IMG/VR virus record: IMGVR_UViG_3300032291_003679
Coordinates: 1 to 64,000 of that record
Strand: one strand, 5' to 3'
DNA length: 64,000 nucleotides
Source of the DNA: a virus
The position numbers and the translations under genes are program-made. Positions 14,332 to 47,243 of this stretch are shown piece after piece; positions within the stretch are counted from its first letter, which is position 1; every line of letters starts with the position of its first letter. Below the pieces are notes generated by a model. That model worked only from the letters and a program-made list of their open reading frames with translations, was not told where the DNA came from and did no database searches.

Positions 14332-14424
14332 ACTTACCTACACCTACTAGGTGCATGCATTGCTCATGCAAAGAGCATGCCGTGAGCATGCCTGCGAGAA
14401 CGAGCAGAACAAGTGTAGGTAAGT
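14332..14424. terminator. Inverted pair of 13-mers between convergent genes
   Basis: A reverse copy (ACTTACCTACACC, 14332) and a forward copy (AGTGTAGGTAAGT, 14412) face each other between convergent genes. Between them are GCATGC-rich palindromic bits (AGCATGCC/GAGCATGCC). The pair can fold as a long-loop hairpin. Confidence 0.45.
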
Positions 14425-14427
14425 GGG

Positions 14428-14661
14428 TCACGACTGGTACTGCGCTTGCTGTGTGTCCAGTGAGTCAATGAGGTTTGCGAGAATCGGCAGAACACTCATG
14501 CCCTCGTTGCCTATGAGAGTAGAGAAGTCTCTCTCTGCCATTCGCACCGTGTACTCCTGTGCAATGTCACGCTTCATGCCTTCGTAGTAGTGACAGAGCC
14601 GTGTGAGTGTGTCGTACAACTCGTCCAGCAGTTCTTCTGTTCGTTCGCTTGTTTCTTTCAT
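14428..14661 (-). CDS. Hypothetical helical protein
   Basis: 77 residues from the ATG at 14661, which follows AGAAAGACACACG. Helical and acidic (TEELLDELYDTLTRLCHYYEG). No family recognised. Confidence 0.5.
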   Translation of the reverse strand: MKETSERTEELLDELYDTLTRLCHYYEGMKRDIAQEYTVRMAERDFSTLIGNEGMSVLPILANLIDSLDTQQAQYQS

Positions 14662-14688
14662 CGTGTGTCTTTCTAGTAACGATTCCAA

Positions 14689-14859
14689 GTTATCTAACTT
14701 TCCCCCTTCCCACTACCCCTCACGGAGAACCAAAGGAGTAAAGATTCTCAACGCTCGGGGCAGTGGTGGTACAGGTGTAGGTAACTCCTGTACCAACGCC
14801 TTTGGAGTGGCAGTGAGTGTCCAAGCCCACTGCCACCCCTTAGGGCGACTTACCTACAC
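14689..14859. terminator. Hairpins downstream of the VWA gene
   Basis: GTGGCAGTG and CACTGCCAC (about 14809-14838) form a strong hairpin just after the - strand stop at 14860. A forward 13-mer at 14773 sits inside a smaller hairpin (ACAGG...CCTGT), and a reverse copy overlaps 14848-14860. Confidence 0.5.
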
Positions 14860-16422
14860 CTACTCACGCTCGGGGAGTGGTGTTCCCATGTGTTCGTACC
14901 ACACCTTACGGAACATGTGAGGGTACACGCTGTGCGCTTTGCCGTTCACTTTGAGGTTGTGCAACTGCGTAATGGCTTCCTCAATGTGAGGAACAACGAT
15001 GTAGCCGTGCTGTCGTGCGTAGGTCATGCACTGCATGGAAAGCAGTTCAGAGAATCCGTCATTTGCTCCACACACTCCACCGTCTGTTACCCATACGAGA
15101 GGTGTGTTCTTGTATTGACGATTCTTTACGCCCCACTCAATCGCAGGGAAGTCCACGCCGTTGCCGTGTCCGTAGTCAATGTATTCCACATTCTCAACCA
15201 TGCGTCCCTTGTCAGCAACTACCCAAGCGTTTGGGTGTTCTCCACCTGCTCGGTAACGGTCACTGTAAATCATCACGGTTGCGCCTTGTGCGTTCTCAAT
15301 GATTTCTGCAATCTGTTCAGTAGTGAATGACATAGAACCACTTGCGTCAATGATGACCATGCCACCACTGCCACGAACGGTCTTGTCAAAGACACGCTTC
15401 GCAGGGTCGGTCATGTAACGGTGCAATCGGCGTGGTCTGCGTCCCATGTTCGTAGCAATGCGCTTCTTGCCCATTGAGCCGTAGTGATAACGAGGCAGAG
15501 GCTCACGACTGACAACCAGTTCTGCCCACCCTGTCGCTCCACCGTGGTCGGCTGGAACTACTTTCCCATGTGGGTTTCCGTCCTTGTCGCCTTCGCTGTC
15601 TCCGTCCTGATACTCGGCAGAGTGTTCACCTGTCTTGTCACCGTCATCGGACTTACCTACACCTTCGCCTTCGCCATTTCCCTTCCCCTTCTTAGGGTCG
15701 TTCTTGCGAGCCTTCGGTGGTGGGAACGAGGCGAGCCTGTCCACCCATTCTGCTAAACGCTCGGTGTGAACGAATCCGTATGGAGCAATGCCGTCATGGG
15801 TGTCGGTGCTTGCGAGTGTGCGTGACTGGTGCGACTTGCGCATTTCCTTCATTGCTCGCTTGCCAATGTCCAGCAGTGCGTCACCCCATGCTCGGTTGTG
15901 CCTGCGTACTCCGTTCAGGAATGGCTTGTGTCCAGCCGTGCCGACTGTGGCGATACAGGTTGCAACTGCACCTGCCCAATCGTTTGACTTTGCTAGTTGT
16001 TCGCCTGCTGAAAGTTCGTTTCCGTCTGCGAGGTGATTCTTCACATCAAAGCCAGCCTGCTGACAGAGGTAGTTCACTCGTAGTTCCTCAACAACTGTCA
16101 TGGCAGTAGCAGAGGCAATAGAGCGACTAACAAACACTTCCATTTGCTCGGGCGAGGGTGACACTTTCGCATGCATCATTTCATGCGCACGAACTACACG
16201 CTCTAACTCACCGTCTGCTGACGGAGCGAACATGACACGGTTGGCAATGTCTGTACGAGGCTCGCCACGCACTGCACGACAGTCCTCAACGACCCAACGC
16301 TCATGGGCTAGGTCTTTGCGACCAAGCATGTTCGGTTCGGCACGGCTTGCGCCCCTCTCCACATCTGACAGTGGAGAGGGAAACGACTTACCTACACCTG
16401 ATTTGGTGGGGTTAGTGGACAT
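14860..16422 (-). CDS. VWA-domain protein (CobT-like partner of the AAA+ ATPase)
   Basis: 520 residues. A metallopeptidase-like HEMMH (about 80) lies in the N-terminal helical part. A charged, Gly/Asp/Lys-rich linker (about 240-290) precedes a von Willebrand A domain with the MIDAS motif D-A-S-G-S (about 359-363) and a later WVTDGG. This matches the layout of CobT-like or MoxR-partner VWA proteins. Two copies of the 13-mer are read in frame as GVGKS (near residue 10 and in the linker), so the repeat has spread into coding DNA. The gene follows the ATPase at 16425 by two bases and surely works with it. Confidence 0.75.
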   Translation of the reverse strand: MSTNPTKSGVGKSFPSPLSDVERGASRAEPNMLGRKDLAHERWVVEDCRAVRGEPRTDIANRVMFAPSADGELERVVRAHEMMHAKVSPSPEQMEVFVSRSIASATAMTVVEELRVNYLCQQAGFDVKNHLADGNELSAGEQLAKSNDWAGAVATCIATVGTAGHKPFLNGVRRHNRAWGDALLDIGKRAMKEMRKSHQSRTLASTDTHDGIAPYGFVHTERLAEWVDRLASFPPPKARKNDPKKGKGNGEGEGVGKSDDGDKTGEHSAEYQDGDSEGDKDGNPHGKVVPADHGGATGWAELVVSREPLPRYHYGSMGKKRIATNMGRRPRRLHRYMTDPAKRVFDKTVRGSGGMVIIDASGSMSFTTEQIAEIIENAQGATVMIYSDRYRAGGEHPNAWVVADKGRMVENVEYIDYGHGNGVDFPAIEWGVKNRQYKNTPLVWVTDGGVCGANDGFSELLSMQCMTYARQHGYIVVPHIEEAITQLHNLKVNGKAHSVYPHMFRKVWYEHMGTPLPERE

Positions 16423-16424
16423 GG

Positions 16425-17147
16425 TTATTTCACTCCGTCCACTGCGAGAGCGTCAAGAATCTGCTTTGCACGATTTCCGAAAGTGAGTTGGCATGCTCGC
16501 TCCATTCCGACTGCCTTGCGCAACTTGTCCAACGCCATGAAAGCACGGAGAGAGATACGAGCCTCGCCACCGTCAGCCATGCGAACGGCGTATCCACGCA
16601 GGTCAGGAGAAAGACGGAGAAGTGCGTTTGGGTGTGGTTCGTTGATACGAACACGAATCGGGAAACGGTCAGCGAGTGCTGTTGGCAGTTCGCTCATGTT
16701 CTCAATGTTCGTGGTCATCACGGCAGAGAATCCGTCAAGTGGACGGACGATTTCACCAGTCTCGGGGTGTTGGAATGTTGCAGATTCAGGAGAATCCAAC
16801 ATGGCAAGAAGTGTTGCGAACACATCGCCACCAGCCTTGTCCACTTCATCAACAATAAGACGACCACCTGTTGTGCCGTTGCCTTTCCATGCTTTGAGAG
16901 CAGAGCCGTCAAGCCACTGGAAGCCACCGTCTTTGCTAGGCATGAAGCCACCAGTTACATCCATGTTGGTCATGTCCTCGGTGCAGACCAAGCGATGTGC
17001 GCCAGCCTCAATGTTTCCGAATGAAAGACCAGCGTAGGTCTTTCCTGTTCCAGCAGGTCCGAACAGAATGATTCTGTCAATACCCGAGTCAAGTGCGTCC
17101 TTGACATCTTGCCAGCACTGTGGCAATACCTCTTGTGTTGTGTCCAT
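16425..17147 (-). CDS. MoxR/CobS-like AAA+ ATPase
   Basis: 240 residues from ATG 17147; the longer frame upstream would run through a promoter. Walker A GPAGTGKT (about 30-37), Walker B RLIVDEVDKAG (about 95), sensor 1 VMTTNIE and an arginine-finger region ADRFPIRV are all visible. MoxR/CobS ATPases act as chaperones that remodel or insert metal into partner complexes with VWA proteins. CobS-like genes are known in many phages, with unknown substrates. Its promoter belongs to the 27-bp family (17188-17214). Confidence 0.8.
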   Translation of the reverse strand: MDTTQEVLPQCWQDVKDALDSGIDRIILFGPAGTGKTYAGLSFGNIEAGAHRLVCTEDMTNMDVTGGFMPSKDGGFQWLDGSALKAWKGNGTTGGRLIVDEVDKAGGDVFATLLAMLDSPESATFQHPETGEIVRPLDGFSAVMTTNIENMSELPTALADRFPIRVRINEPHPNALLRLSPDLRGYAVRMADGGEARISLRAFMALDKLRKAVGMERACQLTFGNRAKQILDALAVDGVK

Positions 17148-17187
17148 TGTTTGCTCCTTTGTAAGCGATTGGTTAGGGACAAGCAAA

Positions 17188-17214
17188 CCATACCACTCGT
17201 GGGTCAGACTTCCC
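17188..17214 (-). promoter_or_regulatory. Family promoter of the ATPase/VWA operon
   Basis: GGAAGTCTGACCC-N3-GAGTGGTATGGT: -10 TATGGT. It lies inside the false N-terminal extension of the ATPase frame, which fixes the start at 17147. Confidence 0.7.
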
Positions 17215-17328
17215 AACTTCACTTGACACCTTGCAACACAAGGGATTTGGACTTACCTACACCTATTGTTCTGACGATTCCGTGCCACTTACCTACACCT
17301 CTTATGTGTGGTCTGTGCGTTCCGAGCC

Positions 17329-17439
17329 ACCTGCCGTGCGCCCCAACGCCGAGCCAGCCCTTACCTGCCCTGCCACCCCGAGTGCCTGCGCCTTCTTCGG
17401 GTGGAGCCCCGCGTTGTTCGGCGAGTCGGGCGGGGCTTA
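17329..17439. repeat. Palindromic element, copy 1
   Basis: CACCTGCCGTGCGCCCC arm, a second CTTACCTGCCCTGCC arm, then GTGGAGCCCCG and GGCGGGGCTT forming the inner hairpin. The 3' outer arm is missing. Confidence 0.6.
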
Positions 17440-17484
17440 GGCCGACTTACCTACACCTAATGGGGACTTACCTACACCTAATGG

Positions 17485-17970
17485 TTACTCGTTGTCTTTG
17501 GGGTCTGAGATTCGCCACAGCCCCTTCTTGACCTTGATAAAAAGTGGAGATTCGCTCACATACTTCAGTGTTGTCTGGTACGAGAACCCAGCAACCTCAA
17601 CGAGCTGGTCGGTGGTGTATTCCTCACCTCGGTGTTCGTCTACCCACTTCTCAAAAGTTCCGTATTTATCTTTGCGTCTCTCGGTCTTGATGATTCCGTT
17701 ATTCGCAGTGCTGATGTGGGTAAGATACTTCTTGACGAACTCATTTATTACATCGTCACTGACGGAGTAAAAGCGAAGCATTGATACAGGGTTCCCATTG
17801 CACCCTTCCCTTTGCCACTTCTCCATGACATACAGCGCACGGACTGTCTCTGCAATGCGCCACATTTCCTGATGGTTGGCGTATTTCTGTTGTGGCTTCT
17901 TGTACTTCTTATCAAACTCGGCATACAACCGTGTGTTTTCTTCATGCACGAAATCAATAGTAAAGTTCAC
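17485..17970 (-). CDS. Hypothetical protein, winged-helix-like C-terminus
   Basis: 161 residues from a GTG at 17970 (AAGGAAAAAGAA upstream). The in-frame extension above it contains a family promoter and is rejected. The C-terminal part (YTTDQLVEVAGFSYQTTLKYVSESPLFIKVKKGLWRI, a helix pair then wing) looks like a winged helix. A regulatory or DNA-binding role is likely. Confidence 0.55.
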   Translation of the reverse strand: MNFTIDFVHEENTRLYAEFDKKYKKPQQKYANHQEMWRIAETVRALYVMEKWQREGCNGNPVSMLRFYSVSDDVINEFVKKYLTHISTANNGIIKTERRKDKYGTFEKWVDEHRGEEYTTDQLVEVAGFSYQTTLKYVSESPLFIKVKKGLWRISDPKDNE

Positions 17971-18012
17971 TTCTTTTTCCTTATTTAGATGTACCTGCAG
18001 CGCAACCCGTAT

Positions 18013-18041
18013 GGACTCTAGCACTCGTCATCCAGACTTCC
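18013..18041 (-). promoter_or_regulatory. Family promoter of the 17485 gene
   Basis: GGAAGTCTGGATGAC then GAGTGCTAGAGT: -10 TAGAGT, the only copy with TAG instead of TAC or TAT. Confidence 0.6.
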
Positions 18042-18251
18042 CCAAGTTGCAAATAAAAAATGAAAAACTGTGTTGCCAGTAAGCCCTATGGCTCGACTTC
18101 CACCACCGTCAAAGGGAAACCAACTAGAAAATCCTGCCGCCGGCTCGAGAACTGTTTTTCAAAAAATCAAAAAATCTGACACCCCTTAGTTGCTACGTAG
18201 CATTTTGACCGTTTCGTGCGGGGCTCCATCCCCCAAATGGCGAGGAAAAGA

Positions 18252-18292
18252 AAGAGGAGTGTCACTGCCAACTGAACAGCGACACCCCTCTT
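18252..18292 (-). terminator. Rho-independent terminator after the 18322 gene
   Basis: On the - strand AAGAGGGGTGTCGCTG pairs (two mismatches) with CAGTGACACTCCTCTT across a nine-base loop, followed by TCTTTTCC. Confidence 0.7.
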
Positions 18293-18321
18293 GGTGTAGG
18301 TAACTGAAAGGGGGGACTTAC

Positions 18322-18531
18322 CTACACCTGACCTATAACTACGAACTGGTCTCCTGCTTCCTCAACAAGACCGAGGTTGCTTCCGTTGTCCCATTTGACA
18401 AACACCGTTCCGATGTCGTCCACAAAGTCCACCGTCCCCTCTTCTCCTGATTTGAGTTTCGTGTAGGGGTCTGTGCATGTGATTAGCCTGACCCTCTTGC
18501 CGACTAGGTGTTCGTTTCTTGCTCGCCTCAT
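18322..18531 (-). CDS. DUF4314-family protein
   Basis: 69 residues. The pattern GKRVRLITCTDPYTKLKSGEEGTV ... DDIGTVFVKWDNGSNLGL (shown in parts: G-x-RVRLI, TDPYT, GTV, WDNGS) is that of the small DUF4314 SH3-like family common in phages and plasmids. Overlaps the next gene by ATGA. Confidence 0.75.
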   Translation of the reverse strand: MRRARNEHLVGKRVRLITCTDPYTKLKSGEEGTVDFVDDIGTVFVKWDNGSNLGLVEEAGDQFVVIGQV

Positions 18532-18674
18532 GCTGGAACCTCGCTTTCTGTATTGGTGCTGATTAGTAGGCGAATGTCTAAGAGCAGGTCGGTCATCTCT
18601 ACTGATGACACAATGTCCCTGCCCGAGCAGTGCGCTATTGCTTTATCCACTAGGGCGACAAGTTCAGTATCCAT
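18528..18674 (-). CDS. Small hypothetical protein (48 aa)
   Basis: ATG at 18674 directly follows a 13-mer (GGTGTAGGTAAGTC-ATG); the stop overlaps the DUF4314 start. Two acidic helices (ELVALVDKAIAH, MTDLLLDIRLLI). Confidence 0.55.
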   Translation of the reverse strand: MDTELVALVDKAIAHCSGRDIVSSVEMTDLLLDIRLLISTNTESEVPA

Positions 18675-18681
18675 GACTTAC

Positions 18682-19377
18682 CTACACCCCCTTGTCTTTC
18701 TTTTTCGGAGCCTTGTCAAGCATGTCTTTGTAAGCAAGCGTCTTGGTGGCAAGGTGCATGTAGCCAACCGTGGCAAGTAAAGCGTCAGGAATACGACCAT
18801 TTGTTTCATGCTCTTTGTCCACTGTGAATGTGTTGCACATTGGTTCTTCGTCAAACTCGGGAACTCCGTGGTCGTCATAGCGATAGAGGCTCGCAATGCT
18901 CCACACATTCGTAGCGTTCCAATCCACGGCAGTCATTATGATTCCTTCACGAACATCAGAAAATGGATTTTCTTTGTAGTCCTTCTCAAAGTCGCCTCTG
19001 TCGTGGTTATGTGCCTCTTCTTCGGTCATCTCTGACTTTGCGTATCCCTCAACGAGTAGAACAATAAAGTCAAACGGACGAATCGGGAGTGACTTCACAA
19101 CATCTTCGTAAGCGTCAAAAATGTCCTCTTTGTGAATGAGAGGAATCATCGCCAAGTGGTATGGCTTTGAGAGTGAGAACTCATGTTGGTAGTCCACGCA
19201 TGCTTCGTGGTCGGGATTACTGTCATTGCTCTCAACGGCAACAAGGAACAGTGGTGGACTGTCTTGCATTGGCTCGTCTTTGCACATTTCTGTCTTTGCA
19301 AAGACGGCTCGGTTGAGCAAATCTTCCATTATTGCTCTGATGTCGTTGTCAATAACTTCATTCTCTTGTGGTGTCAT
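18682..19377 (-). CDS. Hypothetical protein
   Basis: 231 residues, acidic, mixed alpha/beta (PFDFIVLLVEGYAKS, GIIMTAVDWNATNVWSIASLYRYDD). It has its own family promoter and the shared AAAGGGG leader (CTGAAAGGGGCAACCA). No family recognised. Confidence 0.6.
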   Translation of the reverse strand: MTPQENEVIDNDIRAIMEDLLNRAVFAKTEMCKDEPMQDSPPLFLVAVESNDSNPDHEACVDYQHEFSLSKPYHLAMIPLIHKEDIFDAYEDVVKSLPIRPFDFIVLLVEGYAKSEMTEEEAHNHDRGDFEKDYKENPFSDVREGIIMTAVDWNATNVWSIASLYRYDDHGVPEFDEEPMCNTFTVDKEHETNGRIPDALLATVGYMHLATKTLAYKDMLDKAPKKKDKGV

Positions 19378-19412
19378 TGGTTGCCCCTTTCAGGCGTTTT
19401 GTGTTCATTGGA

Positions 19413-19439
19413 AGCATACCACTTGTGGGACAGACTTCC
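19413..19439 (-). promoter_or_regulatory. Family promoter of the 18682 gene
   Basis: GGAAGTCTGTCCC-N4-GTGGTATGCT: -10 TATGCT. A partial 13-mer (AGTGTAGGTAAC) lies just upstream. Confidence 0.7.
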
Positions 19440-19499
19440 AATAGTTACCTACACTGGATAGTGGGAGTCGGTACAAGCCCCCACATGCCAGCCATTTTT

Positions 19500-19724
19500 C
19501 TACTTCTCTCCGAGCAGTGTGTTCACCGATACTCCAAGAGCATTACTTACAGCGAGCAGTGTTTCCACACTCGGCGTGAACTGCCCATTCTCAATACGGT
19601 TCACCGTTTTTCGGTCAAGACCTGCACGGTTGGCAAGTTCCAACTGTGACCAGCCGTTCTCGCTTCTGTGAACTCGTACGATTTCTGAGATTTGCTCAAT
19701 GGATTTAGTTGATGATGTTCCCAT
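19500..19724 (-). CDS. XRE-family (Cro/C1-type) helix-turn-helix regulator
   Basis: 74 residues. VRVHRSENGWSQLELANRAG, LDRKTVNRIENGQFTPSVETLLAVSNAL are the five helices of the XRE domain, with the recognition helix at about 37-47. It is the only classical repressor-type HTH in the 14-33 kb region and is therefore one candidate to bind the 13-mer or 16-mer repeats. Confidence 0.85.
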   Translation of the reverse strand: MGTSSTKSIEQISEIVRVHRSENGWSQLELANRAGLDRKTVNRIENGQFTPSVETLLAVSNALGVSVNTLLGEK

Positions 19725-19787
19725 GTTGGGATTCCTTCTTTCTTTATTGGGGGATTATTTGTGTGTGTGTAGTTACCTACACCTATT

Positions 19788-20528
19788 TCAGACAGACGAA
19801 ATGAATGTGCGTGGCGTTCTCCCTTCTTTATCGCAACGGCGAACATAGGCGAGGTGCTTCTTGTATTCGTTCATGCACAAAGACATGTCGGTATCGCATT
19901 GGTCTAAAAGGTGGTGGTTCCACTCGGAGTGTGCTTCCCACCATTCTTCCATTGCGTCATCGGGGGCGTCCTCTGCCTCTGCTTTTTCACAGAGTTTGCT
20001 CAACTCGGGGGTGAGATGTTGGGGGTCACGCTCGCCAGCCTCAATGATGATTCCATTATGAAACACTGACCAACAGATGAACGCCATTGACTCTTCATCA
20101 GAGCAGGTTCCAAAAATAAGATTTGGATAAAGAGTAGAAATCTTTTGGATTAGTCCGTCGGCAGGCGACCATGCAGATTCGTAACGCACAGAAATCGTGT
20201 TTTTTACAGGGGTTGTGTCGTCAATCTCGGGTCGGCATGCACCCCACTTACTTCCCCAAGTTTCGCAAGCGTCTAAGTACCCATCAAATCCATCACTTGC
20301 GCTAGTGAACGCAGTGAATGTAGTTTCTACTCCATCAGCGTTAGTCGTCTTGATTTCCTTTGACCCTCGTGGGTCTAGTGGTACGAGTTTATTCAGGTCG
20401 TACTCAACGGTAACTCGTGATTTATCTCCCTCAACTTTGACATCGGCAACTGTAATGTCTTTGACGAACTTGGCGAGTTCTCGCTTATTCCCCATGACGG
20501 TCATGTATGTGTAACACCAGTTAGGCAT
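19788..20528 (-). CDS. DUF1281/YubB ferredoxin-like protein (Api92-like)
   Basis: 246 residues from ATG 20528 (AACCGAAAGGAAAATCAA upstream). The start MPNWCYTYMTVMGNKREL is the family hallmark. Such proteins are widespread in plasmids and phages; function unknown. Confidence 0.7.
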   Translation of the reverse strand: MPNWCYTYMTVMGNKRELAKFVKDITVADVKVEGDKSRVTVEYDLNKLVPLDPRGSKEIKTTNADGVETTFTAFTSASDGFDGYLDACETWGSKWGACRPEIDDTTPVKNTISVRYESAWSPADGLIQKISTLYPNLIFGTCSDEESMAFICWSVFHNGIIIEAGERDPQHLTPELSKLCEKAEAEDAPDDAMEEWWEAHSEWNHHLLDQCDTDMSLCMNEYKKHLAYVRRCDKEGRTPRTFISSV

Positions 20529-20560
20529 TTGATTTTCCTTTCGGTTTGGTAGATACACAG

Positions 20561-20587
20561 AGCGTACCACCCTCGGGACAAACTTCC
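20561..20587 (-). promoter_or_regulatory. Family promoter of the 19788 gene
   Basis: GGAAGTTTGTCCC-N3-GGGTGGTACGCT: -10 TACGCT. Upstream come a 13-mer (20593) and a 16-mer (20607-20622), then the palindromic element: a complete cassette boundary. Confidence 0.75.
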
Positions 20588-20640
20588 CCGAGTTACCTAC
20601 ACCTCTCTTCCACCACCGTCAAAGGGTTTAGTGGGGTGGG

Positions 20641-20760
20641 CTACCTGCTGCGCCCCCCGTCACGCGAGACCTCTTGCCCCCGACCCCGACTTGCCTGCCG
20701 AGCACCCCCAACTGCCTGCTCGTGCTGGAGCCCCGGCCGACTCGGAGCATGCGGGGCTTC
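20641..20760. repeat. Palindromic element, copy 2
   Basis: CTACCTGCTGCGCCCCCC arm, a nested TGCCTGCCGAGCACCCCC arm, inner hairpin GCTGGAGCCCCG / GCGGGGCTTC. Confidence 0.65.
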
Positions 20761-20765
20761 TTGTC

Positions 20766-20787
20766 AAAGTATCCAATCGGATACTTT
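20766..20787. terminator. Symmetric hairpin terminator
   Basis: AAAGTATCC-aatc-GGATACTTT followed by TT on the + strand; T-rich on both sides, so it may act in both directions. Confidence 0.6.
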
Positions 20788-20811
20788 TTGTGCTGGAAAA
20801 GTTACCTACAC

Positions 20812-21114: not shown

Positions 21115-21124
21115 TTACCTACAC

Positions 21125-21574: not shown

Positions 21575-21575
21575 T

Positions 21576-22093: not shown

Positions 22094-22122
22094 GATTTCC
22101 CTTTCGCATTGGCTTCGCCATC

Positions 22123-22149
22123 ACAGTACCACACAGGGGACAGACTTCC
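22123..22149 (-). promoter_or_regulatory. Family promoter of the 21878 unit
   Basis: GGAAGTCTGTCCC-N2-TGTGTGGTACTGT: -10 TACTGT; a 13-mer (22160) and a 16-mer (22181-22196) lie upstream. Confidence 0.7.
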
Positions 22150-22208
22150 CAAAGCACAGAGTTACCTACACCCACACGGTCTTCCACCACCGTCATTGTG
22201 TTGAGAGA

Positions 22209-23541: not shown

Positions 23542-23558
23542 CTTTCAGGCTCGGTTGG

Positions 23559-39620: not shown

Positions 39621-39673
39621 GACGCCTCTCCCTTATGTCCGGAACTCTACCCAAATGATAACAGCAGTAGACA

Positions 39674-40699: not shown

Positions 40700-40775
40700 A
40701 GTGTCTCCGTCTCTCTATCGTGTAGATAAATCTATCTGAAAGATGTGTCGTGTAGGGGAAGTGTAGGTAAGTAGT

Positions 40776-40838
40776 GCGGGGCTCCCGAAGGGAGGAGGCT
40801 CACCTGTGCGCTGTGAGACGGGTGAGCACGGCAGGTGA
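40776..40838. repeat. Palindromic element, copy 15 (3' half)
   Basis: GCGGGGCTCCCGAAGGGAGG then ACGGGTGAGCACGGCAGGTGA, leading into a promoter. A 13-mer lies just upstream (40760). Confidence 0.65.
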
Positions 40839-40842
40839 CTCG

Positions 40843-40869
40843 GGAAGCCTGACCCACCCGTGGTACTCT
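40843..40869 (+). promoter_or_regulatory. Family promoter of the 40912 gene
   Basis: GGAAGCCTGACCC-N3-CGTGGTACTCT: -10 TACTCT. Confidence 0.75.
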
Positions 40870-40876
40870 GTGGGTG

Positions 40877-40899
40877 TCGGGGGGAAAGTCTCCCCGACA
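40877..40899 (+). promoter_or_regulatory. 5'-leader hairpin next to the RBS
   Basis: GTCGGGG and CCCCGAC pair around GGAAAGTCT, followed by AAAGGAG (RBS). Same position as the hairpin at 33737. Confidence 0.6.
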
Positions 40900-40911
40900 A
40901 AGGAGTTCATC

Positions 40912-41418
40912 ATGTTCCCAGCATCTATCCACCAAGCACTCACAGGCGAGGCGACCACCGACCTCGGTAACGGGGCATACTCTGTGGGGCAGGTTCCCAC
41001 AGAGGCAGAGGCGTTCGTCAAGTCGTACGAGCCATGCGAAAACTCACCCGTCCATACCGTCCCCACCGACCCAACTGTCGTCACGCTCGCCGAGGTGACC
41101 ACCTACCTGCGCCTCGTTGCCGAAGGTACAAGCAAGGACGCAGGATTTGCAGGGAGCCTCGTGGCATACGCCGAGCGCACGGGAACGCTCACCGAGAAGC
41201 AGGCGAAACACGCTCGCCGACTCTACGCTAAATGGCACCGTGCCTGCGAGTGGCTCGCTCGCCACAAGAACGGACAGCACGCGTGGAAGTACGCAGGGAC
41301 AAAGTGTCACAACAGCAACTACGACCTCGGCACCTACGCCGAAACCTCGTACTACCAGTGCGAGCAGTGTGGGAAGTGGAAGTCGCAGTACACGAACAAG
41401 AACTACTCGGGGGACTGA
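40912..41418 (+). CDS. Hypothetical protein with C-terminal zinc site
   Basis: 168 residues from ATG 40912. Helical middle part (KQAKHARRLYAKWHRACEWLARHKNGQHAW) and end YYQCEQCGKWKSQY, a CxxC ribbon half with an earlier Cys/His (GTKCHN). No family recognised. Confidence 0.6.
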   Translation: MFPASIHQALTGEATTDLGNGAYSVGQVPTEAEAFVKSYEPCENSPVHTVPTDPTVVTLAEVTTYLRLVAEGTSKDAGFAGSLVAYAERTGTLTEKQAKHARRLYAKWHRACEWLARHKNGQHAWKYAGTKCHNSNYDLGTYAETSYYQCEQCGKWKSQYTNKNYSGD

Positions 41419-41451
41419 CCCGAAGAGGTGTAGGTAACCCAAGACGGACAG

Positions 41452-41490
41452 CCCCCACCCCACGCCCCCACCCCACGCCCCCACCCCACG
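41452..41490. repeat. 13-bp C-rich tandem repeat (three copies)
   Basis: Three copies of CCCCCACCCCACG, then decayed copies to about 41510. The G-rich complement could form a quadruplex. Confidence 0.85.
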
Positions 41491-41571
41491 CCCGAACACC
41501 CACGCCCCCACCTGCCTCCGAGAGCAGAGGGCAAGCCGAGCGAAGCGAGACGGGAGAAAGCGAGGAACCAA

Positions 41572-41631
41572 GCGGGGCTCCTACCCCAATGACGGTGCAT
41601 GGGTGCATACACGGGTGGGCACGGCAGGTAG
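41572..41631. repeat. Palindromic element, copy 16 (3' half)
   Basis: GCGGGGCTCCTACCCC then ACACGGGTGGGCACGGCAGGTAG, leading into the promoter at 41639. Confidence 0.7.
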
Positions 41632-41638
41632 TCCGATT

Positions 41639-41665
41639 TGGAAGTCTGAACCGTTAGTGGTACAT
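41639..41665 (+). promoter_or_regulatory. Family promoter of the 41673 gene (leaderless)
   Basis: GGAAGTCTGAACC-N3-AGTGGTACATT; the ATG is seven bases after the -10. Confidence 0.75.
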
Positions 41666-41672
41666 TTATGGC

Positions 41673-42881
41673 ATGACCGAAGTTTCATCTGCCTCAATCG
41701 CCTTTGACCTGCACACGCGATACTTGGAATATCGCAAGAGCCACCCAACGATGGACAGGCTCTTACATCTCGGATACTTTCGCGCCATGTGGGCAGACGA
41801 CGATACGCCTATTCTGACCCGTGAGGCATTAGAGAGCGAAGCAAAAATGGGCGCAGTTCATCACGAAGTACATCGCGCACTAGACGACACAATCATCGCA
41901 CTCGGTGACACCGTGTTTCTCACTGACGACTTGCGTGAGTTGGTCAAGACGGCAGAAGTAACAATGCCTGATGAGGTGTTATTTGAGACGGACATTTTCA
42001 CCCCGTGTGGATTCATCGTGATGGAGACTCCACTGCCACAAACGGTGAAGTCGCTTATCAAGGCCGAAGATTTTGACGAAGTGCTAACACTCTCAAAAAA
42101 GTACGGCGCAATCATCACTGGAACGCGCAACGACACTGAACCTGACGAAGATGGAAACTATGTAGGCGTAGAGAACTGGGAAGTGCAGGCGTTTGCATGG
42201 GCTGACGCGAGCGCAATAACACCCGAAGCACTTTCGGAAATAGAGAGACGGTTTGGGAAAGACAGCAACGAGTACGCCTTCGCTCAAAACATTTCTAAGA
42301 ACTCAGGAAATGACAGTGCCATTCAGGTGCGTGTTTTCGGAACTCTTATCTCTACCACTGTCAATGGGCTAACGATAGAAGTTCCACAACTACACCTTGC
42401 CCCTTTACGACTAATGGATATGTACGCGTTCTTCTACGGCGAAGATGGAATGGAAATAGAACGCGAAGTAAGTGGTGTAGGTAACTTTTCAGAGGCCGAC
42501 CTGAACGAGTCCTCATGGGAACGAAGCAGAGAAGTGCGCCGATTTCTTGTTGCTCTGTTCCGTCTCATGGACGAGTATGTGGACATTGACAGGCACGGCC
42601 TGCATCGCGCTTTCGGAAAGCGAGCAACCCGTGGTGGCCGAACAGGTGACACGAAGAATGTCACGATTCTCTCACTGCGTCGTGCGCTCGGTGATGATGA
42701 AGAAGGAATCGGTGCAGGAGCGAAGGTGACGCTCGCGCATCTCGTCCGTGGCCACTGGCGCAATCAGTGGTATCCATCACAGAAGATGCACCGTGCGAAA
42801 TGGATACGCGCACACCGTCGTGGTGGCAGTGCTGGTGATGAAGTGACTGCACGGCCTCGCATCATCAAGGTGGACAGATAG
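41673..42881 (+). CDS. Actinobacterial-type hypothetical protein (RGHWRNQWYPS motif)
   Basis: 402 residues. The C-terminal block VTILSLRRAL ... HLVRGHWRNQWYPSQKMHRAKWI resembles proteins found in many actinobacterial genomes and phages; role unknown. The 13-mer is read in frame as GVGN near residue 270. Expected to be translated from a leaderless mRNA. Confidence 0.65.
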   Translation: MTEVSSASIAFDLHTRYLEYRKSHPTMDRLLHLGYFRAMWADDDTPILTREALESEAKMGAVHHEVHRALDDTIIALGDTVFLTDDLRELVKTAEVTMPDEVLFETDIFTPCGFIVMETPLPQTVKSLIKAEDFDEVLTLSKKYGAIITGTRNDTEPDEDGNYVGVENWEVQAFAWADASAITPEALSEIERRFGKDSNEYAFAQNISKNSGNDSAIQVRVFGTLISTTVNGLTIEVPQLHLAPLRLMDMYAFFYGEDGMEIEREVSGVGNFSEADLNESSWERSREVRRFLVALFRLMDEYVDIDRHGLHRAFGKRATRGGRTGDTKNVTILSLRRALGDDEEGIGAGAKVTLAHLVRGHWRNQWYPSQKMHRAKWIRAHRRGGSAGDEVTARPRIIKVDR

Positions 42882-42888
42882 AACCTGT

Positions 42889-42937
42889 GGACTTACCTAC
42901 ACCCGTAGCAGGCTCGCTATCAGGTGTAGGTAAGTCC
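42889..42937. terminator. Facing 13-mer pair between convergent genes
   Basis: GGACTTACCTACACC and GGTGTAGGTAAGTCC: 15 paired bases around an 18-base spacer. Confidence 0.6.
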
Positions 42938-42947
42938 GTTGGCCGTA

Positions 42948-43139
42948 TTAGTCTCGCGTTGGCGTGATTGCGAAACTGACTGAACGCTCGTCGTTGCGAG
43001 TCTCTGGAAAGTAGAACGCAAGACCGAGCCACGCTTGCGCTTCTCGCTTGCTGGCGAAGCCCGTGGCCTCAACCGTTGAGCGAGAGCGTCCGTTCGCGAG
43101 AACGGCAACGCGTGTGATGGTGAATGTGGAATGTGCCAT
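42948..43139 (-). CDS. Small basic protein
   Basis: 63 residues from ATG 43139 (CGAAAGGGGTTCATC leader). Strand-rich start, then RSTVEATGFASKREAQAWLGLAFYF, a strand-helix pattern as in other small proteins of the region. Confidence 0.55.
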   Translation of the reverse strand: MAHSTFTITRVAVLANGRSRSTVEATGFASKREAQAWLGLAFYFPETRNDERSVSFAITPTRD

Positions 43140-43169
43140 GATGAACCCCTTTCGTTCGGCAACACACAC

Positions 43170-43197
43170 AGAGTACCACCGATGGAACAGACTTTCC
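43170..43197 (-). promoter_or_regulatory. Family promoter of the 42948 gene
   Basis: GGAAAGTCTGTTCC-N3-GGTGGTACTCT: -10 TACTCT; 13-mer at 43210. Confidence 0.7.
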
Positions 43198-43248
43198 AAA
43201 AGTGCATGATTACCTACACCTATTCGGCGCAACACTCGCACTCTATGC

Positions 43249-43294
43249 GAGGACAACCGAACGAAGTGAGGGCGTCAGCACCGGGGCTCCCACT
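43249..43294. repeat. 30-bp dispersed repeat, copy c, with element fragment
   Basis: AGGACAACCGAACGAAGTGA then GGGCGTCAG, joined to CCGGGGCTCCCAC, a fragment of the palindromic element. Confidence 0.65.
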
Positions 43295-43378
43295 CTCCAA
43301 CCATGCATAAGCACCGTGCCGAGACTTACCTACACCTAGTAGATGAGTGCCGACACGGTGAATACGCCGTGTACCGAA

Positions 43379-44083
43379 TCAGTATGCGTGTGGCGCGTCT
43401 ACTTCCATAGGTGCACGACACACATGACAGAGTGGGGACTCTGAACCGTCCTCACCGAATAGAGGTGTTTCGTCATCAGCGAGCGAGTACCCATGAGACT
43501 GCGAAAGCATTTCACCGTAGTTGCATTCCACTGAATGTTCTTCATCGTTCGGGCAAGTGAGCGAGTAGTTTGCGTTGTCGTATGGGAACGACTCTGCCAT
43601 GTCTACCGTGACACGGAATGCACGAGGACGCGTGTAGCCACCACGAACATCGCAACCCCCGTGAATCTGCAAGAGCACGAACACTTCACCACCGTCCGAG
43701 AATGTCACGCCCTGCAATGTCTGCGCGAGTGAGTCCTCTCCGTTGTATGTGTTCCATGTGTGTGCACTGTCGTCCTTTTCTGTTGCGAACTCTTGTGCGA
43801 GACCGAGCCACCCGTCATCAGGGTTCTCTTCACAGAACGCACGGAACTGCTTGTCCAAGAGTGGTGCATACTCCAATCGTTCTGAAAGGTAGTGATAGAC
43901 CGAGAGCGTCACGCCCCACTTGTCTGCCCATGCGCGAGGTTGCGCGTCCCACTCTGCGAGTGTGCGACCTGCGTTCTGTTCCCAGTGTCTCCCGTAGGCT
44001 CCACCACTGTCCAAGATGTGTCGTCCCGTAGGCTCCGTGAGCATTTCTGCGATTACTTCGCGTGTGCGTGTTGTTGTCTTCAT
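43379..44083 (-). CDS. Plasmid/phage-type hypothetical protein
   Basis: 234 residues. The start TREVIAEMLTEPTGRHILDSGGAYGRHWEQN is a recognisable motif of a family found on mobile elements; the C-terminus has CHVCRAPME (zinc-like). The ATG is directly preceded by a 13-mer (GGTGTAGGTAAGTC-ATG). Confidence 0.65.
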   Translation of the reverse strand: MKTTTRTREVIAEMLTEPTGRHILDSGGAYGRHWEQNAGRTLAEWDAQPRAWADKWGVTLSVYHYLSERLEYAPLLDKQFRAFCEENPDDGWLGLAQEFATEKDDSAHTWNTYNGEDSLAQTLQGVTFSDGGEVFVLLQIHGGCDVRGGYTRPRAFRVTVDMAESFPYDNANYSLTCPNDEEHSVECNYGEMLSQSHGYSLADDETPLFGEDGSESPLCHVCRAPMEVDAPHAY

Positions 44084-44397
44084 GACTTACCTACACCCTT
44101 GTAAGGGTATGACGGGTGTGCCCGTCGCCCCTTGTGGCGAAGTGTGGCGATTTCGTTGCGTGACCACAGCGTGAGAAGTGTGCTGACAATCGTGCCAACA
44201 ATGGTGACGAACAATCCTGCGAAAGTATCGTACGCAGTGTGACTCCAATAAGAGAGAACAACAAGGTACGCACCAAGCGTGGTCACGAGATACGAAGCCC
44301 CCGTGATGAATCGGTAGATGAATGTTGGATAGTTGTCGTCCAACCAGTTAGTAGCCCGTGCGTCTGCTCGGTCTAGTTTGTCAATAATGTTTGCCAT
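44080..44397 (-). CDS. Two-helix membrane protein
   Basis: 105 residues from ATG 44397. Membrane segments YRFITGASYLVTTLGAYLVV and FAGLFVTIVGTIVSTLLTLW. The 13-mer encodes the last residues (GVGKS) and the stop overlaps the next ATG. Confidence 0.6.
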   Translation of the reverse strand: MANIIDKLDRADARATNWLDDNYPTFIYRFITGASYLVTTLGAYLVVLSYWSHTAYDTFAGLFVTIVGTIVSTLLTLWSRNEIATLRHKGRRAHPSYPYKGVGKS

Positions 44398-44430
44398 GTG
44401 GATTCCCTTTCCGTTTGAGTTGGCAAGATG

Positions 44431-44458
44431 AGCGTACCACAGTGGGGACAGACTTTCC
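44431..44458 (-). promoter_or_regulatory. Family promoter of the 44080-43379 unit
   Basis: GGAAAGTCTGTCCC-N2-TGTGGTACGCT: -10 TACGCT. Confidence 0.7.
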
Positions 44459-44461
44459 GAC

Positions 44462-44530
44462 CTACCTGCCGTGCCTCCCCGATGTGGCGAGGGGTGGGAT
44501 ACTTCCCCTGCTGGGAGCCCCGTTGTTTTT
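44462..44530. repeat. Palindromic element, copy 17 (5' half)
   Basis: CTACCTGCCGTGCCTCCCCG and CTGGGAGCCCCG followed by TTGTTTTT; the second half is missing, and here it ends like a terminator. Confidence 0.65.
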
Positions 44531-44568
44531 GACTCTTCTGTCATAACAGACACGAGTCGGTGACTTAC

Positions 44569-44826
44569 CTACACCTCGTCATCACCACGCAGGTAGTTGG
44601 CACGCATCACTTCCGTGCTGGCCTCACCTGTTTGGTCAAGCGTCGTGATGTCGTACACAGCACCACAGCGATAACACAGGTACGAAAAACCGTCCCATGC
44701 ACCCGTGGCGTCGGGGGCGATTATCTCTCCTGTTGGGAGACACGAGTAGAAGCCGTCGATGTCAGGTTCATTACCACATTCACAGACGAGCCAGTCTGCT
44801 GTAGTGCGTTCGAGATTGAGTGTCAT
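44569..44826 (-). CDS. Small zinc-binding protein
   Basis: 85 residues; VCECGNEP and YLCYRCGAVY give a CxC/CxxC pair. ATGA overlap with the 44823 gene. Confidence 0.6.
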   Translation of the reverse strand: MTLNLERTTADWLVCECGNEPDIDGFYSCLPTGEIIAPDATGAWDGFSYLCYRCGAVYDITTLDQTGEASTEVMRANYLRGDDEV

Positions 44827-45302
44827 GATGGTTCCTCTTGATGGGTGATGGAAGATACATCATAGGGGTTTTCTTCAGGGTCGTCATGCCACACGCCATC
44901 AGGCCATGCAGTACGTGTGTGTACTCCATGAACGTTCTTGCCGAAGATGTCAGTGGCCTGCCATGCATGTGTGCAACACGGCACTGGGGTGTCTCGTGAG
45001 TCAGGGTGACAGTTCTGTCCAATGTCTTGAGCGAGTAGAGGGAACGTAGCGAGGAACTTGGCAACACAGTCATGACAAAGAATCCATTCACGTGTACGCA
45101 GGCTTCCTGTCAGTACACGAACGTTGTCATCGAATCCACCGTAGTAGCCGAATGTGTCAAAGGGTAAGACCCAACCATTGTCAGGGTATGACTCCTGTTG
45201 TGTACACGGCACTGATGCACAGCATGCTGAACATCGTGCGTGCTTGACGACTGGTGTAGATGGTGTGATGAATGGTGACTGTGTGTCAGGCGTATCGCTC
45301 AT
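44823..45302 (-). CDS. Cys-rich hypothetical protein, leaderless
   Basis: 159 residues with several Cys motifs (CSACCASVPC, CHDCVAKF, PCCTHAW). The -10 (TACTCT) lies seven bases before the ATG. Confidence 0.6.
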   Translation of the reverse strand: MSDTPDTQSPFITPSTPVVKHARCSACCASVPCTQQESYPDNGWVLPFDTFGYYGGFDDNVRVLTGSLRTREWILCHDCVAKFLATFPLLAQDIGQNCHPDSRDTPVPCCTHAWQATDIFGKNVHGVHTRTAWPDGVWHDDPEENPYDVSSITHQEEPS

Positions 45303-45309
45303 GCGAGAA

Positions 45310-45336
45310 AGAGTACCAGTATGGGGACAGACTTAC
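45310..45336 (-). promoter_or_regulatory. Family promoter of the 44823 unit (leaderless)
   Basis: GTAAGTCTGTCCC-N3-ACTGGTACTCT; the first G of the box is changed. Confidence 0.65.
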
Positions 45337-45396
45337 AACGTACCTGCAGTGCAACCCATGAGACGCCCGTGGCACTTGCGTCGTTCATGCTGATGG

Positions 45397-45762
45397 TCAG
45401 GTGACGATGTGTCCTGATGTCATGCGATACAGCACTGCGTAGCAGAAGCGTCTGCGCTGTGTGATGCTCCACTCCACCTGATAACGATGGTGTCTGTTGA
45501 GCATGTCGATGTCTGCCTGCGAACGGTGTATGCCTAGTTCCATCTCTGTCTCTATCATGATGGACATGATGTTCACCTCACTACCCGTGGCACTGCGAGG
45601 CGTCACACCTGCCTCTCGGCACGCCTGAAACACCTTGGTCATGAACATCGAGCATGCGAGCATGTGCTCAAGCTCTTCATCGTCAGTGAGGTAGTCATTG
45701 GTCAAGCGTGATACACGAATGGCCTGATGTACCTTGCGCTTAGGTATGTAGATGCCTGACAT
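45397..45762 (-). CDS. Hypothetical protein
   Basis: 121 residues; helical, Met-rich (EHMLACSMFMTKVFQACREAG; NIMSIMIETEMELGI). No family recognised. No family promoter or 13-mer is seen at its start. Confidence 0.55.
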   Translation of the reverse strand: MSGIYIPKRKVHQAIRVSRLTNDYLTDDEELEHMLACSMFMTKVFQACREAGVTPRSATGSEVNIMSIMIETEMELGIHRSQADIDMLNRHHRYQVEWSITQRRRFCYAVLYRMTSGHIVT

Positions 45763-45798
45763 GAGGCAAGGGTATCACTCACTAGGTGAGCGTGTCCC

Positions 45799-45972
45799 CT
45801 ATCCCCATTTGATTTCTTTCGTCTGTTTCTCTTGGGGCTCTACTGCTACTACATCAAGCATGCTCCCCTGATTGAGTAGAGAGTGAACCATTGAGATTGC
45901 TTCGTCAATGTTCATTGGGGCGTCAAGGTCACTGCGCTTACGCACTGCGACGGTGATTCTGTATGTATCCAT
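45799..45972 (-). CDS. Small hypothetical protein
   Basis: 57 residues from ATG 45972, two bases after the previous stop. Strand RITVAVRKR then a helix (NIDEAISMVHSLLNQG). Confidence 0.5.
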   Translation of the reverse strand: MDTYRITVAVRKRSDLDAPMNIDEAISMVHSLLNQGSMLDVVAVEPQEKQTKEIKWG

Positions 45973-45974
45973 GC

Positions 45975-46184
45975 TTAGCACCATACAGCCTTCCATAGTC
46001 GCGCAACGCTTTGTGCTTGCTGAGGTGATTGACAAGGGATACGTCTGATGGTGTGTTGCGTCCCCTCTGATGAGGGTAGGGACAACCACACCTCCACGTC
46101 ATCACCAATGGCATTGACGTGAGTGACTGTCCCCTCTGATGAAAGGTCAGTGATGTGAGAGGTGAGTAGGTCTAGTGATGTCAT
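45975..46184 (-). CDS. Small hypothetical protein
   Basis: 69 residues from ATG 46184 (TTG/ATG starts up to 46193 possible). Beta-rich (GTVTHVNAIGDDVEVWLSL). Confidence 0.5.
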   Translation of the reverse strand: MTSLDLLTSHITDLSSEGTVTHVNAIGDDVEVWLSLPSSEGTQHTIRRIPCQSPQQAQSVARLWKAVWC

Positions 46185-46274
46185 GAGGGACACAGTACAT
46201 CAGGGGTGGTACATAGTCAATGGGGTGACGATGATGTGGGGTAGCGATGTTCAGGGGGGTATGGTGTTACTCGT

Positions 46275-46481
46275 ATGACACCCGTGACACCTCGCAAACA
46301 TTCACGCTCTCACTCACCTATGGCACGCCTATGGCAAGGGTGGTGCGACCTCTATGACAAGTGGTGGTCACGATGGTCACGATGGAGCAATGGCATAGGG
46401 CTTGACCCCTTTCCTCTCGCAATCGCAATCGGGTGTGTGGTGATGGCACTGCTCACACTGCTGTCTATTGGTCGTGTGTAG
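46275..46481 (+). CDS. Small basic membrane protein
   Basis: 68 residues; basic, Trp-rich N-terminus (WCDLYDKWWSRWSRWSNG) and one membrane helix at the end (LAIAIGCVVMALLTLLSIG). Confidence 0.45.
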   Translation: MTPVTPRKHSRSHSPMARLWQGWCDLYDKWWSRWSRWSNGIGLDPFPLAIAIGCVVMALLTLLSIGRV

Positions 46482-47243
46482 TACACCCGTGGCCCCCTGC
46501 GATTGACCTTACCTACACCTCAGGCGAACAGGTACGGCTTGACCTACTGGCCTTGCGCTTGTGGCATAGACGACACGCTTGCTTGCCTCATACATTGCGA
46601 GCATCACGCTATGCGCTTGCCTCACTAAGACATACGTCATTGGTAAACGATTGACGCTTGTCTGTTGTCTGCTTTGATTGGGCTATGTGCTTTCGCATAG
46701 CGTCAAGCACAACTCGGACAGTGCTCTCGCATAAGTCGTATGACCCACAGAACCCGAGAACCCGAAGGACCCGAAAACCCGAAAGGCATTGCGCTGACCT
46801 TGCTTGTATGAAAGGCAACGACGAACGACCAACGCACTTCGTGTGCGTGCGTCATTGAGTGGTGAGAGCAGGGGTATGTGTGTGTTTCTCTGTGTAGACA
46901 AGACACTGCTAGGGGCGAGACGAAGGGTGGCGTTTGGTTGTGACGTTCGCCTTCGCTGTGCTCCTCTATTGACGAGATACCTGCTGTGCTTCCCCACTCT
47001 TGGCTCTGCTCTGCTTGCTTCGTTCTGTCCACAGTGGTCGACGATTGACACGGTCACGCCTCTGTCCACAGAACTGACCATCGACGCCACCAGAGAGAAG
47101 GCACCCCCTTGGAGCCCCGCCGGCTTTCAGTCGAACCCCCAGCGCCGGGGGGAGCTAAAAATCAAATTTTTATGGCCACCTTTTTTTATCTTAATTTATC
47201 CAAACCGCTTGTGTTCGTCCCCAGGGCTGTGTACTATGTGCTC
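46482..47243. other. 762-bp region without a supported gene
   Basis: ORFs here overlap on several frames and none looks protein-like. It holds the last 13-mer (46505), a run of four AACCCGAAR-type units (about 46748-46790), a hairpin with GGAGCCCCGCCGG / GCCGGGGGGAGC (about 47112-47155) that ends the palindromic-element series, and the promoter at 47209. It marks the right border of the accessory region. Confidence 0.6.
47209..47237 (+). promoter_or_regulatory. Promoter of the 47244 gene (leaderless)
   Basis: TTGTGT-N17-TACTAT, with the ATG six bases after the -10. A vegetative-type promoter, unlike the 27-bp family. Confidence 0.6.

What the first reader, a model, noticed from the sequence alone, without database searches (positions are those of the whole stretch)
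14332..46520. A stoperator-like 13-mer repeated nearly 80 times through the accessory region
Seen: GGTGTAGGTAAGT and close variants occur about once per 400 bp from 14.3 to 46.5 kb. Outside this region I found only one isolated core at about 4680. Copies are asymmetric and mostly point along local transcription, lie between genes, just upstream of promoters, or as facing pairs between convergent genes. Known: mycobacteriophage L5-type phages carry 24-30 asymmetric 13-bp stoperators, bound by the repressor, spread over short intergenic gaps in one orientation. Inference: this may be an unrelated, much denser system of the same kind that silences or insulates the accessory region. Other options are an mRNA processing site, a Chi/KOPS-like strand marker, or a recombination target.
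Basis: partly seen in the sequence, partly recalled or inferred. Interest (0 to 1): 0.9.

Follow-up and report, generated by a model that had tools for sequence, protein, structure and literature searches.

The report
Oriented phage operator sites, early region
A large, uncultured virus of bacteria (probably of freshwater Actinomycetota) carries about 80 copies of one short directional DNA word at the ends and starts of its small early genes; related viruses have the word at the same places in a different spelling, so it is most likely the landing site of a virus protein that switches this gene region off, much as the unrelated 'stoperators' of mycobacterial viruses do.

Summary
The repeat is real. 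GGTGTAGGTAAGT (up to 2 mismatches) occurs 81 times in the window against 1.0 expected, and the 158-kb record holds almost none outside 11.7-46.5 kb. It marks gene boundaries. In gaps between same-direction genes the copies follow transcription (180 against 34 in five lineages); in divergent gaps 28 of 28 point towards the nearer gene. One class sits at stop codons, often supplying the TAG; the other lies just upstream of early promoters. Related phages carry equally dense arrays with other spellings (GAGTAGATAAGT, AGAGTAGATAACT, CTAATAGATAACT and others). All 20 testable orthologous junctions keep a site in a relative with a different motif. At 24 matched sites two bases have switched everywhere, while a G/C variant is retained site by site (22/24, p=0.0008): in-situ co-evolution with a trans-acting DNA reader, not copying. 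Best reading: dual operator and stoperator-like sites of a phage protein controlling the early region. It resembles Cluster A stoperators in logic but not in sequence, confinement or integrase. Silencing is inferred, not shown.

The parts
11765..46519 (.). span of the site array (early/accessory region)
11765..11777 (-). site, exact, between small genes; conserved in G001 and G013
14332..14344 (-). site, exact
14412..14424 (+). site
14774..14786 (+). site
14848..14860 (-). site at stop codon of 14860-16422
15651..15663 (-). site inside a gene
16386..16398 (-). site inside a gene, near its start
17251..17263 (-). promoter-side site of 16425-17222
17287..17299 (-). tandem site
17445..17457 (-). 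gene-end site after 17485-18024
17466..17478 (-). gene-end site, 21 bp from the previous one
18293..18305 (+). site of an inverted pair
18316..18328 (-). site at a stop codon
18676..18688 (-). site in an 8-bp gap, followed by ATG
19443..19455 (-). promoter-side site
19771..19783 (-). operon-internal site upstream of the Xre HTH gene; present in six genomes
20591..20603 (-). promoter-side site
20800..20812 (-). gene-end site (TAG is the stop codon)
21113..21125 (-). gene-end site (TAG is the stop codon)
21388..21400 (-). site inside a gene
22160..22172 (-). promoter-side site
22401..22413 (-). site, outward pair with 22449
22449..22461 (+). site, outward pair, abuts a stop codon
22757..22769 (-). 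site at a start/stop junction
23300..23312 (-). promoter-side site
23445..23457 (-). site
23509..23521 (+). site
23529..23541 (-). gene-end site
24064..24076 (-). site in a divergent gap, pointing to the nearer gene
24386..24398 (-). site, outward pair
24425..24437 (+). gene-end site
25034..25046 (-). promoter-side site
25655..25667 (-). promoter-side site
25868..25880 (-). site, outward pair
25902..25914 (+). degenerate site GGTGTAGGTATCC, outward pair
26226..26238 (-). site at a start/stop junction
26558..26570 (-). site inside a gene
27000..27012 (+). site
27037..27049 (-). site
27068..27080 (+). site
27347..27359 (+). weak site
27406..27418 (-). promoter-side tandem site
27426..27438 (-). 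gene-end/tandem site
27934..27946 (-). promoter-side site
28171..28183 (-). weak site
28202..28214 (+). site
28236..28248 (-). gene-end site (TAG is the stop codon)
28602..28614 (+). weak match, possibly chance
29212..29224 (+). gene-end site
29238..29250 (-). site
29267..29279 (+). site
29596..29608 (-). site followed by ATG; switched spelling in an 86% identical block of L093
30042..30054 (-). promoter-side site; switched spelling in L093
30587..30599 (-). site, outward pair
30605..30617 (+). site, outward pair
31412..31424 (-). site inside a gene (not a site in L093)
31890..31902 (-). promoter-side triple array
31910..31922 (-). promoter-side triple array
31929..31941 (-). promoter-side triple array
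32115..32127 (-). gene-end site
33688..33700 (+). promoter-side/gene-end site
33985..33997 (-). site, outward pair
34010..34022 (+). site, outward pair
34722..34734 (+). site in an 8-bp gap, TAG is the stop codon, ATG follows
35068..35080 (+). gene-end site
35086..35098 (-). site
35111..35123 (+). site
35246..35258 (-). gene-end site
35615..35627 (-). promoter-side site
36581..36593 (+). site
39109..39121 (+). site near the 3' end of the helicase gene
40760..40772 (+). promoter-side site
41427..41439 (+). gene-end site
42474..42486 (+). site inside a gene
42891..42903 (-). outward pair between convergent genes
42923..42935 (+). outward pair between convergent genes
43208..43220 (-). promoter-side site
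43324..43336 (-). gene-end site
44085..44097 (-). site followed by ATG
44563..44575 (-). site
46507..46519 (-). weak site at the right edge
4678..4690 (-). isolated weak core, probably chance
19500..19724 (-). candidate reader: 74-aa Xre/Cro-C1 HTH protein (g40)
   Evidence: Pfam HTH_3 2.7e-15; absent from 24 of 25 records of relatives without the array
17485..17970 (-). candidate reader: protein with C-terminal winged helix (g36); site or degenerate site in its own leader in several genomes
13574..13957 (+). less likely reader: HA domain + sigma-r4-like HTH protein (g30), also in relatives without the array
44456..44469 (-). example of a degenerate promoter-side site, GCAGGTAGGTCGGA

Best explanation
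The 13-mers are asymmetric binding sites of a sequence-specific, phage-encoded DNA-binding protein that controls the early region. Copies just upstream of (in one lineage overlapping) the -35 region of early promoters act as operators. Copies at stop codons and in short operon gaps act as orientation-dependent roadblocks, stoperator-like, that stop RNA polymerase running from one small gene into the next. When the protein is present, the whole 35-kb early region is shut down or each unit is insulated. SHOWN by sequence: array, placement, orientation, confinement, concerted specificity switch. INFERRED: a protein reads it, it works on DNA, the effect is repressive, and it acts as an early-gene shut-off (or prophage silencing).
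For: Count and confinement. Orientation with transcription: tandem gaps 180 vs 34, divergent gaps 28 vs 0; promoter-side sites 59 vs 2, gaps of 60 bp or less 36 vs 1. Peak exactly at stop codons. Sites upstream of the fixed early promoter block GGAAGTCTGnnCC..GTGGTAnnnT. Same junctions carry sites in relatives with another spelling: G000/G001 20 of 20. At 24 matched sites two bases are switched everywhere, while the G/C variant is retained 22/24, p=0.0008. Inside homologous 86-89% identical DNA the site bases switch. Sites in divergent gaps argue for a DNA-level role. No cross-spelling: G001 has 0 GTGTAGGTAAST and G000 only 4 AGTAGATAAST. An HTH protein is encoded by every array-bearing relative with enough flank. 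Published analogue: L5-type repressor sites are operators plus stoperators, with orientation matched to transcription (PMC9283540, PMC6550527).
Against: No binding or expression data. No tyrosine or large serine integrase, so a prophage-silencing role is doubtful. Promoter-side sites lie at variable distance upstream of -35, which is unusual for a simple operator. Orientation is not kept in convergent gaps.
Confidence: 0.58

Rival explanations
1. Activator boxes: a phage regulator binds the site upstream of each early promoter and recruits RNA polymerase (MotA- or Ogr-like logic). Gene-end copies belong to the next promoter or are remnants.
For: Promoter-side sites are co-oriented with their promoter (59 vs 2; divergent 28 vs 0) and nearly every early promoter has a full or degenerate copy. 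In G005 the site overlaps -35.
Against: Spacing to -10 varies over several turns without clear phasing. Many sites lie in gaps of 60 bp or less with no room for a promoter, at stop codons, or between convergent genes.
Confidence: 0.15
2. Cassette borders: each small gene with its promoter is bracketed by direct repeats that serve as recombination targets for single-gene exchange (like the PeSL idea for T4-type phages, recalled from memory).
For: Sites bracket transcription units in gene orientation. Recently exchanged genes (28863-29196, 29591-29793, 30658-31878; about 89% identical to L093) have block ends near sites.
Against: No tyrosine or large serine recombinase. Individual sites keep their own G/C variant while switching spelling, and foreign-spelling sites are almost absent, so exchange does not carry sites. 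Gene-end sites are often inverted (17 of 59). Gene boundaries are expected block ends under any model.
Confidence: 0.1
3. RNA-level element: the transcribed site at gene ends is an mRNA processing, decay or terminator signal.
For: Position at stop codons and co-orientation in operon gaps.
Against: Sites upstream of divergent promoters lie outside expected transcripts. Inverted pairs often mismatch at the S position (read, roughly 8 of 19 pairs complementary), so a hairpin is not selected. Antisense copies are common at gene ends.
Confidence: 0.07
4. Host-encoded reader: the motif is a site of a host regulator, and spelling differs because the phages infect different hosts.
For: Lineage-specific spelling; no phage reader proven.
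Against: Confinement to one region, and HTH genes present in every array-bearing relative with enough flank, favour a phage reader.
Confidence: 0.1

Closest known systems
Cluster A mycobacteriophage stoperators (L5, Bxb1, TipsytheTRex; also Gordonia A15 and Rhodococcus CA phages)
   Same: 13-14 bp, asymmetric, intergenic or overlapping gene ends, oriented with transcription, a few at promoters, consensus drifting between relatives with synteny kept (PMC9283540, PMC6550527, PMC5559632, PMC13313380).
   Different: Sequence unrelated (TAGRTAAST core against TGTCAAG end); about 80 instead of 21-30 copies and confined to a 35-kb early region of a 158-kb genome; many copies at promoters; no integrase; no recognisable repressor.
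Start-associated sequences (SAS) of Cluster K mycobacteriophages
   Same: 13-bp asymmetric repeats between genes, mostly one orientation (PMC3203893).
   Different: SAS sit at translation starts and overlap the ribosome-binding site; here most copies are at stop codons or 60-90 nt upstream of starts.
17-bp repeats of Cluster O mycobacteriophages (Corndog)
   Same: More than 30 dispersed, partly intergenic repeats denser in one arm; function unknown (PMC4351075).
   Different: Those are palindromes with a third inside genes; these are asymmetric and mostly intergenic.

Membership tests
Cluster A-type stoperators | asymmetric site of about 13 bp in many copies | tested here: met
Cluster A-type stoperators | orientation correlated with transcription | tested here: met
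   not so in convergent gaps
Cluster A-type stoperators | intergenic or overlapping gene termini, some at promoters | tested here: met
Cluster A-type stoperators | spread over the whole genome | tested here: not met
   0 of 31 gaps of 60 bp or more outside the span have a site
Cluster A-type stoperators | consensus ending in TGTCAAG | tested here: not met
   against PMC5559632
Cluster A-type stoperators | cognate consensus drifts between relatives while sites stay syntenic | tested here: met
Cluster A-type stoperators | immunity repressor with HTH plus stoperator domain | tested here: inconclusive
   three candidates (two by PDB sequence search, one by fold search) did not list it; others not tested
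Cluster A-type stoperators | temperate phage with integrase or parABS | tested here: inconclusive
   no PF00589 or PF07508; one ParA-like protein with atypical Walker A; record may be incomplete
Cluster A-type stoperators | bound protein stops RNA polymerase in an orientation-dependent way | not testable with these tools
   needs a wet experiment
SAS (Cluster K) | sits at the translation start, overlapping the ribosome-binding site | tested here: not met
   only a handful have ATG about 10 nt downstream
Cluster O 17-bp repeats | dyad symmetry | tested here: not met
Chi/KOPS-type strand marker | orientation constant along a replichore | tested here: not met
   orientation follows each gene

The most novel reading that the evidence does not exclude
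An independently evolved stoperator-type system in a large phage family without cultured members or a recognised integrase: one phage protein shuts off or insulates dozens of separately promoted early genes through about 80-100 oriented operator/roadblock sites, and its specificity has been re-set several times, with the sites following base by base in place.
Probability: 0.45. Interest if true: 0.78.

Novelty: new variant of a known kind. Interest (0 to 1): 0.64.

Why it matters
It would be, as far as found here, a second, unrelated case of stoperator-like control, several times denser and limited to the early region. At least six lineages share the site positions but differ in the site spelling, so they form a natural series for asking how a regulator and about 80 targets change specificity together: the order of substitutions can be read from orthologous sites. 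It also gives a quick flag for early regions in uncultured phages and a short list of regulators to test.

Tried and rejected
Chance or composition: rejected (81 vs 1.0). RNA family: nothing but tRNAs in Rfam. RNA hairpins from inverted pairs: not favoured, since many pairs mismatch at the variable S position (read). Helical phasing of tandem sites or site-to-promoter spacing: no clear pattern. Chi/KOPS: orientation follows genes. Spread by copying or gene conversion: disfavoured by site-by-site retention of the G/C variant. Other repeats in more distant relatives (L047, L050, L056, L060, L199, L205, L208, L241) first looked like further spellings but are -35/spacer/-10 blocks of early promoters, a different thing. 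g40 as sole reader from co-occurrence: weakened because the array-bearing phages form one clade, because L062 and others have an Xre protein without an array, and because its recognition helix is nearly constant. g36 helix against the base before TAG: suggestive (K with G, E with A, G/N with C) but L248 and L182 break it. g36 fold search: weak winged-helix matches only. Exact double-site scan of IMG/VR: nothing. No cultured relatives: g34, g36 and g30 have no match in 50,697 phage records, and the terminase only about 42%.
Full report
WHAT IS THERE. The window is the first 64 kb of a 158,021-bp IMG/VR virus record. GGTGTAGGTAAGT with up to two mismatches occurs 81 times in it, with 1.0 expected from dinucleotide shuffles; 47 are exact. 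The wider logo is atta-GGTGTAGGTAA(G/C)TC. All 69 GTGTAGGTAAST of the record lie between 11,765 and 44,574, none in the remaining 94 kb, and the reversed pattern gives none. Inside the span 30 of 37 gaps of 60 bp or more contain a site; outside it, none of 31. So the confinement is not caused by a lack of intergenic space.

PLACEMENT. Genes were called with a simple hexamer model written here, so individual boundaries may be off. In five distinct lineages pooled (G000, G001, G005, G007, G009), sites in gaps between same-direction genes point along transcription 180 times and against it 34 times. In divergent gaps 28 of 28 point towards the nearer gene; in convergent gaps there is no such preference (15 to 25). 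Split by position: promoter-side sites 59:2, sites in gaps of 60 bp or less 36:1, gene-end sites 42:17. There is a spike where the TAG of the site is itself the stop codon of the upstream gene. Promoter-side copies lie directly upstream of a constant early promoter, GGAAGTCTGnnCCnnnnnGTGGTAnnnT; in G005 they overlap its -35 region. Promoters lacking the 13-mer mostly carry a degenerate form, CGGCAGGTRRSTCG. Long gaps therefore typically read: stop codon and site, spacer, site, promoter, gene.

RELATIVES. Searches with the VWA protein (14860-16422) and the helicase (37219-39171) brought about 100 loci. A clade of them carries equally dense arrays at the same place with other spellings: GTGTAGGTAAST (G000, G002-G004), GAGTAGATAAGTC (G001), AGGTAGATAAGTC (G005), AGAGTAGATAACT (G006, G007, G013), CTAATAGATAACT (G008, G009). 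A search with the HTH protein added AATAGATAAGTC (L182-184), ACTAACTAGATAAGT (L190-197) and, more distant, GAATAAAGATAGCG (L181); contigs filed in bacterial MAGs added GGGGTAGATAAC (L248) and another ACTAGATAAGT (L251, in an Actinomycetota MAG). Spellings do not mix: G001 has none of the G000 form, and G000 has four AGTAGATAAST.

SITES ARE INHERITED, SPELLING IS RE-SET. Of the junctions conserved between G000 and G001, all 20 that carry a site in G000 carry one in G001. At 24 sites matched within 10 bp of the same gene boundary, two positions differ at all sites, which is partly so by definition of the patterns, while the flanks are only about 41% identical. The variable position TAA(G/C)T, free in both patterns, agrees at 22 of 24 sites (Fisher p = 0.0008). 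Hence sites descend one by one and were respelled in place by point changes, rather than overwritten from a template. In blocks of 86-89% identical DNA shared with L093, sites are again respelled (29596-29608, 30042-30054). The straightforward reading is selection by a trans-acting reader whose specificity changed.

DNA OR RNA. Sites upstream of divergent promoters should not be transcribed, orientation there is strict, and the arms of inverted pairs often mismatch at the variable position (read). These point to a DNA-level role. The one known design that combines both is the L5-type repressor with operators and stoperators (PMC9283540, PMC6550527). I therefore favour a dual operator/stoperator-like system. 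Whether it shuts off early genes in a lytic cycle or silences a prophage is open. No tyrosine or large serine integrase was found; a ParA-like protein at 33060-33680 has an atypical Walker A (KGGVGTS).

WHO READS IT. g40 (19500-19724, Xre HTH) is present in every array-bearing locus with enough flank and absent from 24 of 25 records of relatives without an array. But the array-bearing phages form a clade, Xre proteins also occur in phages without an array, and its recognition helix is nearly constant. g36 (17485-17970) has a predicted C-terminal winged helix (fold matches weak). In several lineages (G001, G005, G009, L024, L185) a site lies between its promoter and its start codon, and a degenerate form does in G000 and G002. 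This differs from the usual upstream placement and would suit autoregulation. It is, however, also present in relatives without an array.

NOVELTY. Site logic equals Cluster A stoperators; sequence, density, confinement and the apparent lack of an integrase do not. No cultured relative was found, and no paper found describes this array. Literature coverage is limited to open-licence papers. Caveats: pooled counts come from related genomes and are not independent, gene calls are approximate, and the function is inferred.

Noticed in passing
L047, L050, L056, L060, L199, L205, L208, L241: More distant relatives have lineage-specific conserved blocks inside their early promoters (e.g. GGTTGT..CCTTACTACCC, TATAACCGATAAAGT, CCTAATAACGGATACnGT, ATTATTGCCTGTAAGGT), 13-30 copies each; perhaps operators or a dedicated RNA-polymerase partner.
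   Followed up: partly
window 17334-44469, e.g. 26772(-), 32981(+), 44469(-): A longer element, ACGGGtGGGnnCGGCAGGTARGTCGG, recurs about 19 times; it looks like a degenerate form of the site and often precedes early promoters.
   Followed up: partly
long gaps in the window and in the relatives' loci: GGAGCCCCG and TGACGGTGGTGGAAG recur in long gaps across the whole family, including relatives without the 13-mer array.
   Followed up: no
window 28863-29196, 29591-29793, 30658-31878: Three blocks about 89% identical to L093 look like recent single-gene exchanges with a phage that uses another site spelling.
   Followed up: partly
window 33060-33680: ParA/CpaE-like ATPase with atypical Walker A (KGGVGTS), about 33-45% identical in G001, G005 and G007; no ParB partner seen.
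   Followed up: no
window 14860-17222: VWA protein plus CobS/MoxR-like AAA ATPase pair, the best conserved genes of the region across about 80 loci.
   Followed up: no
window 18682-19377: Acidic 231-aa protein of unknown function next to the Xre HTH gene; follows the array in most loci, with weak relatives in L205 and L241.
   Followed up: no
window 55136-55210 (-): A fifth, weak tRNA seen by Rfam (35.3 bits) but not by ARAGORN.
   Followed up: no
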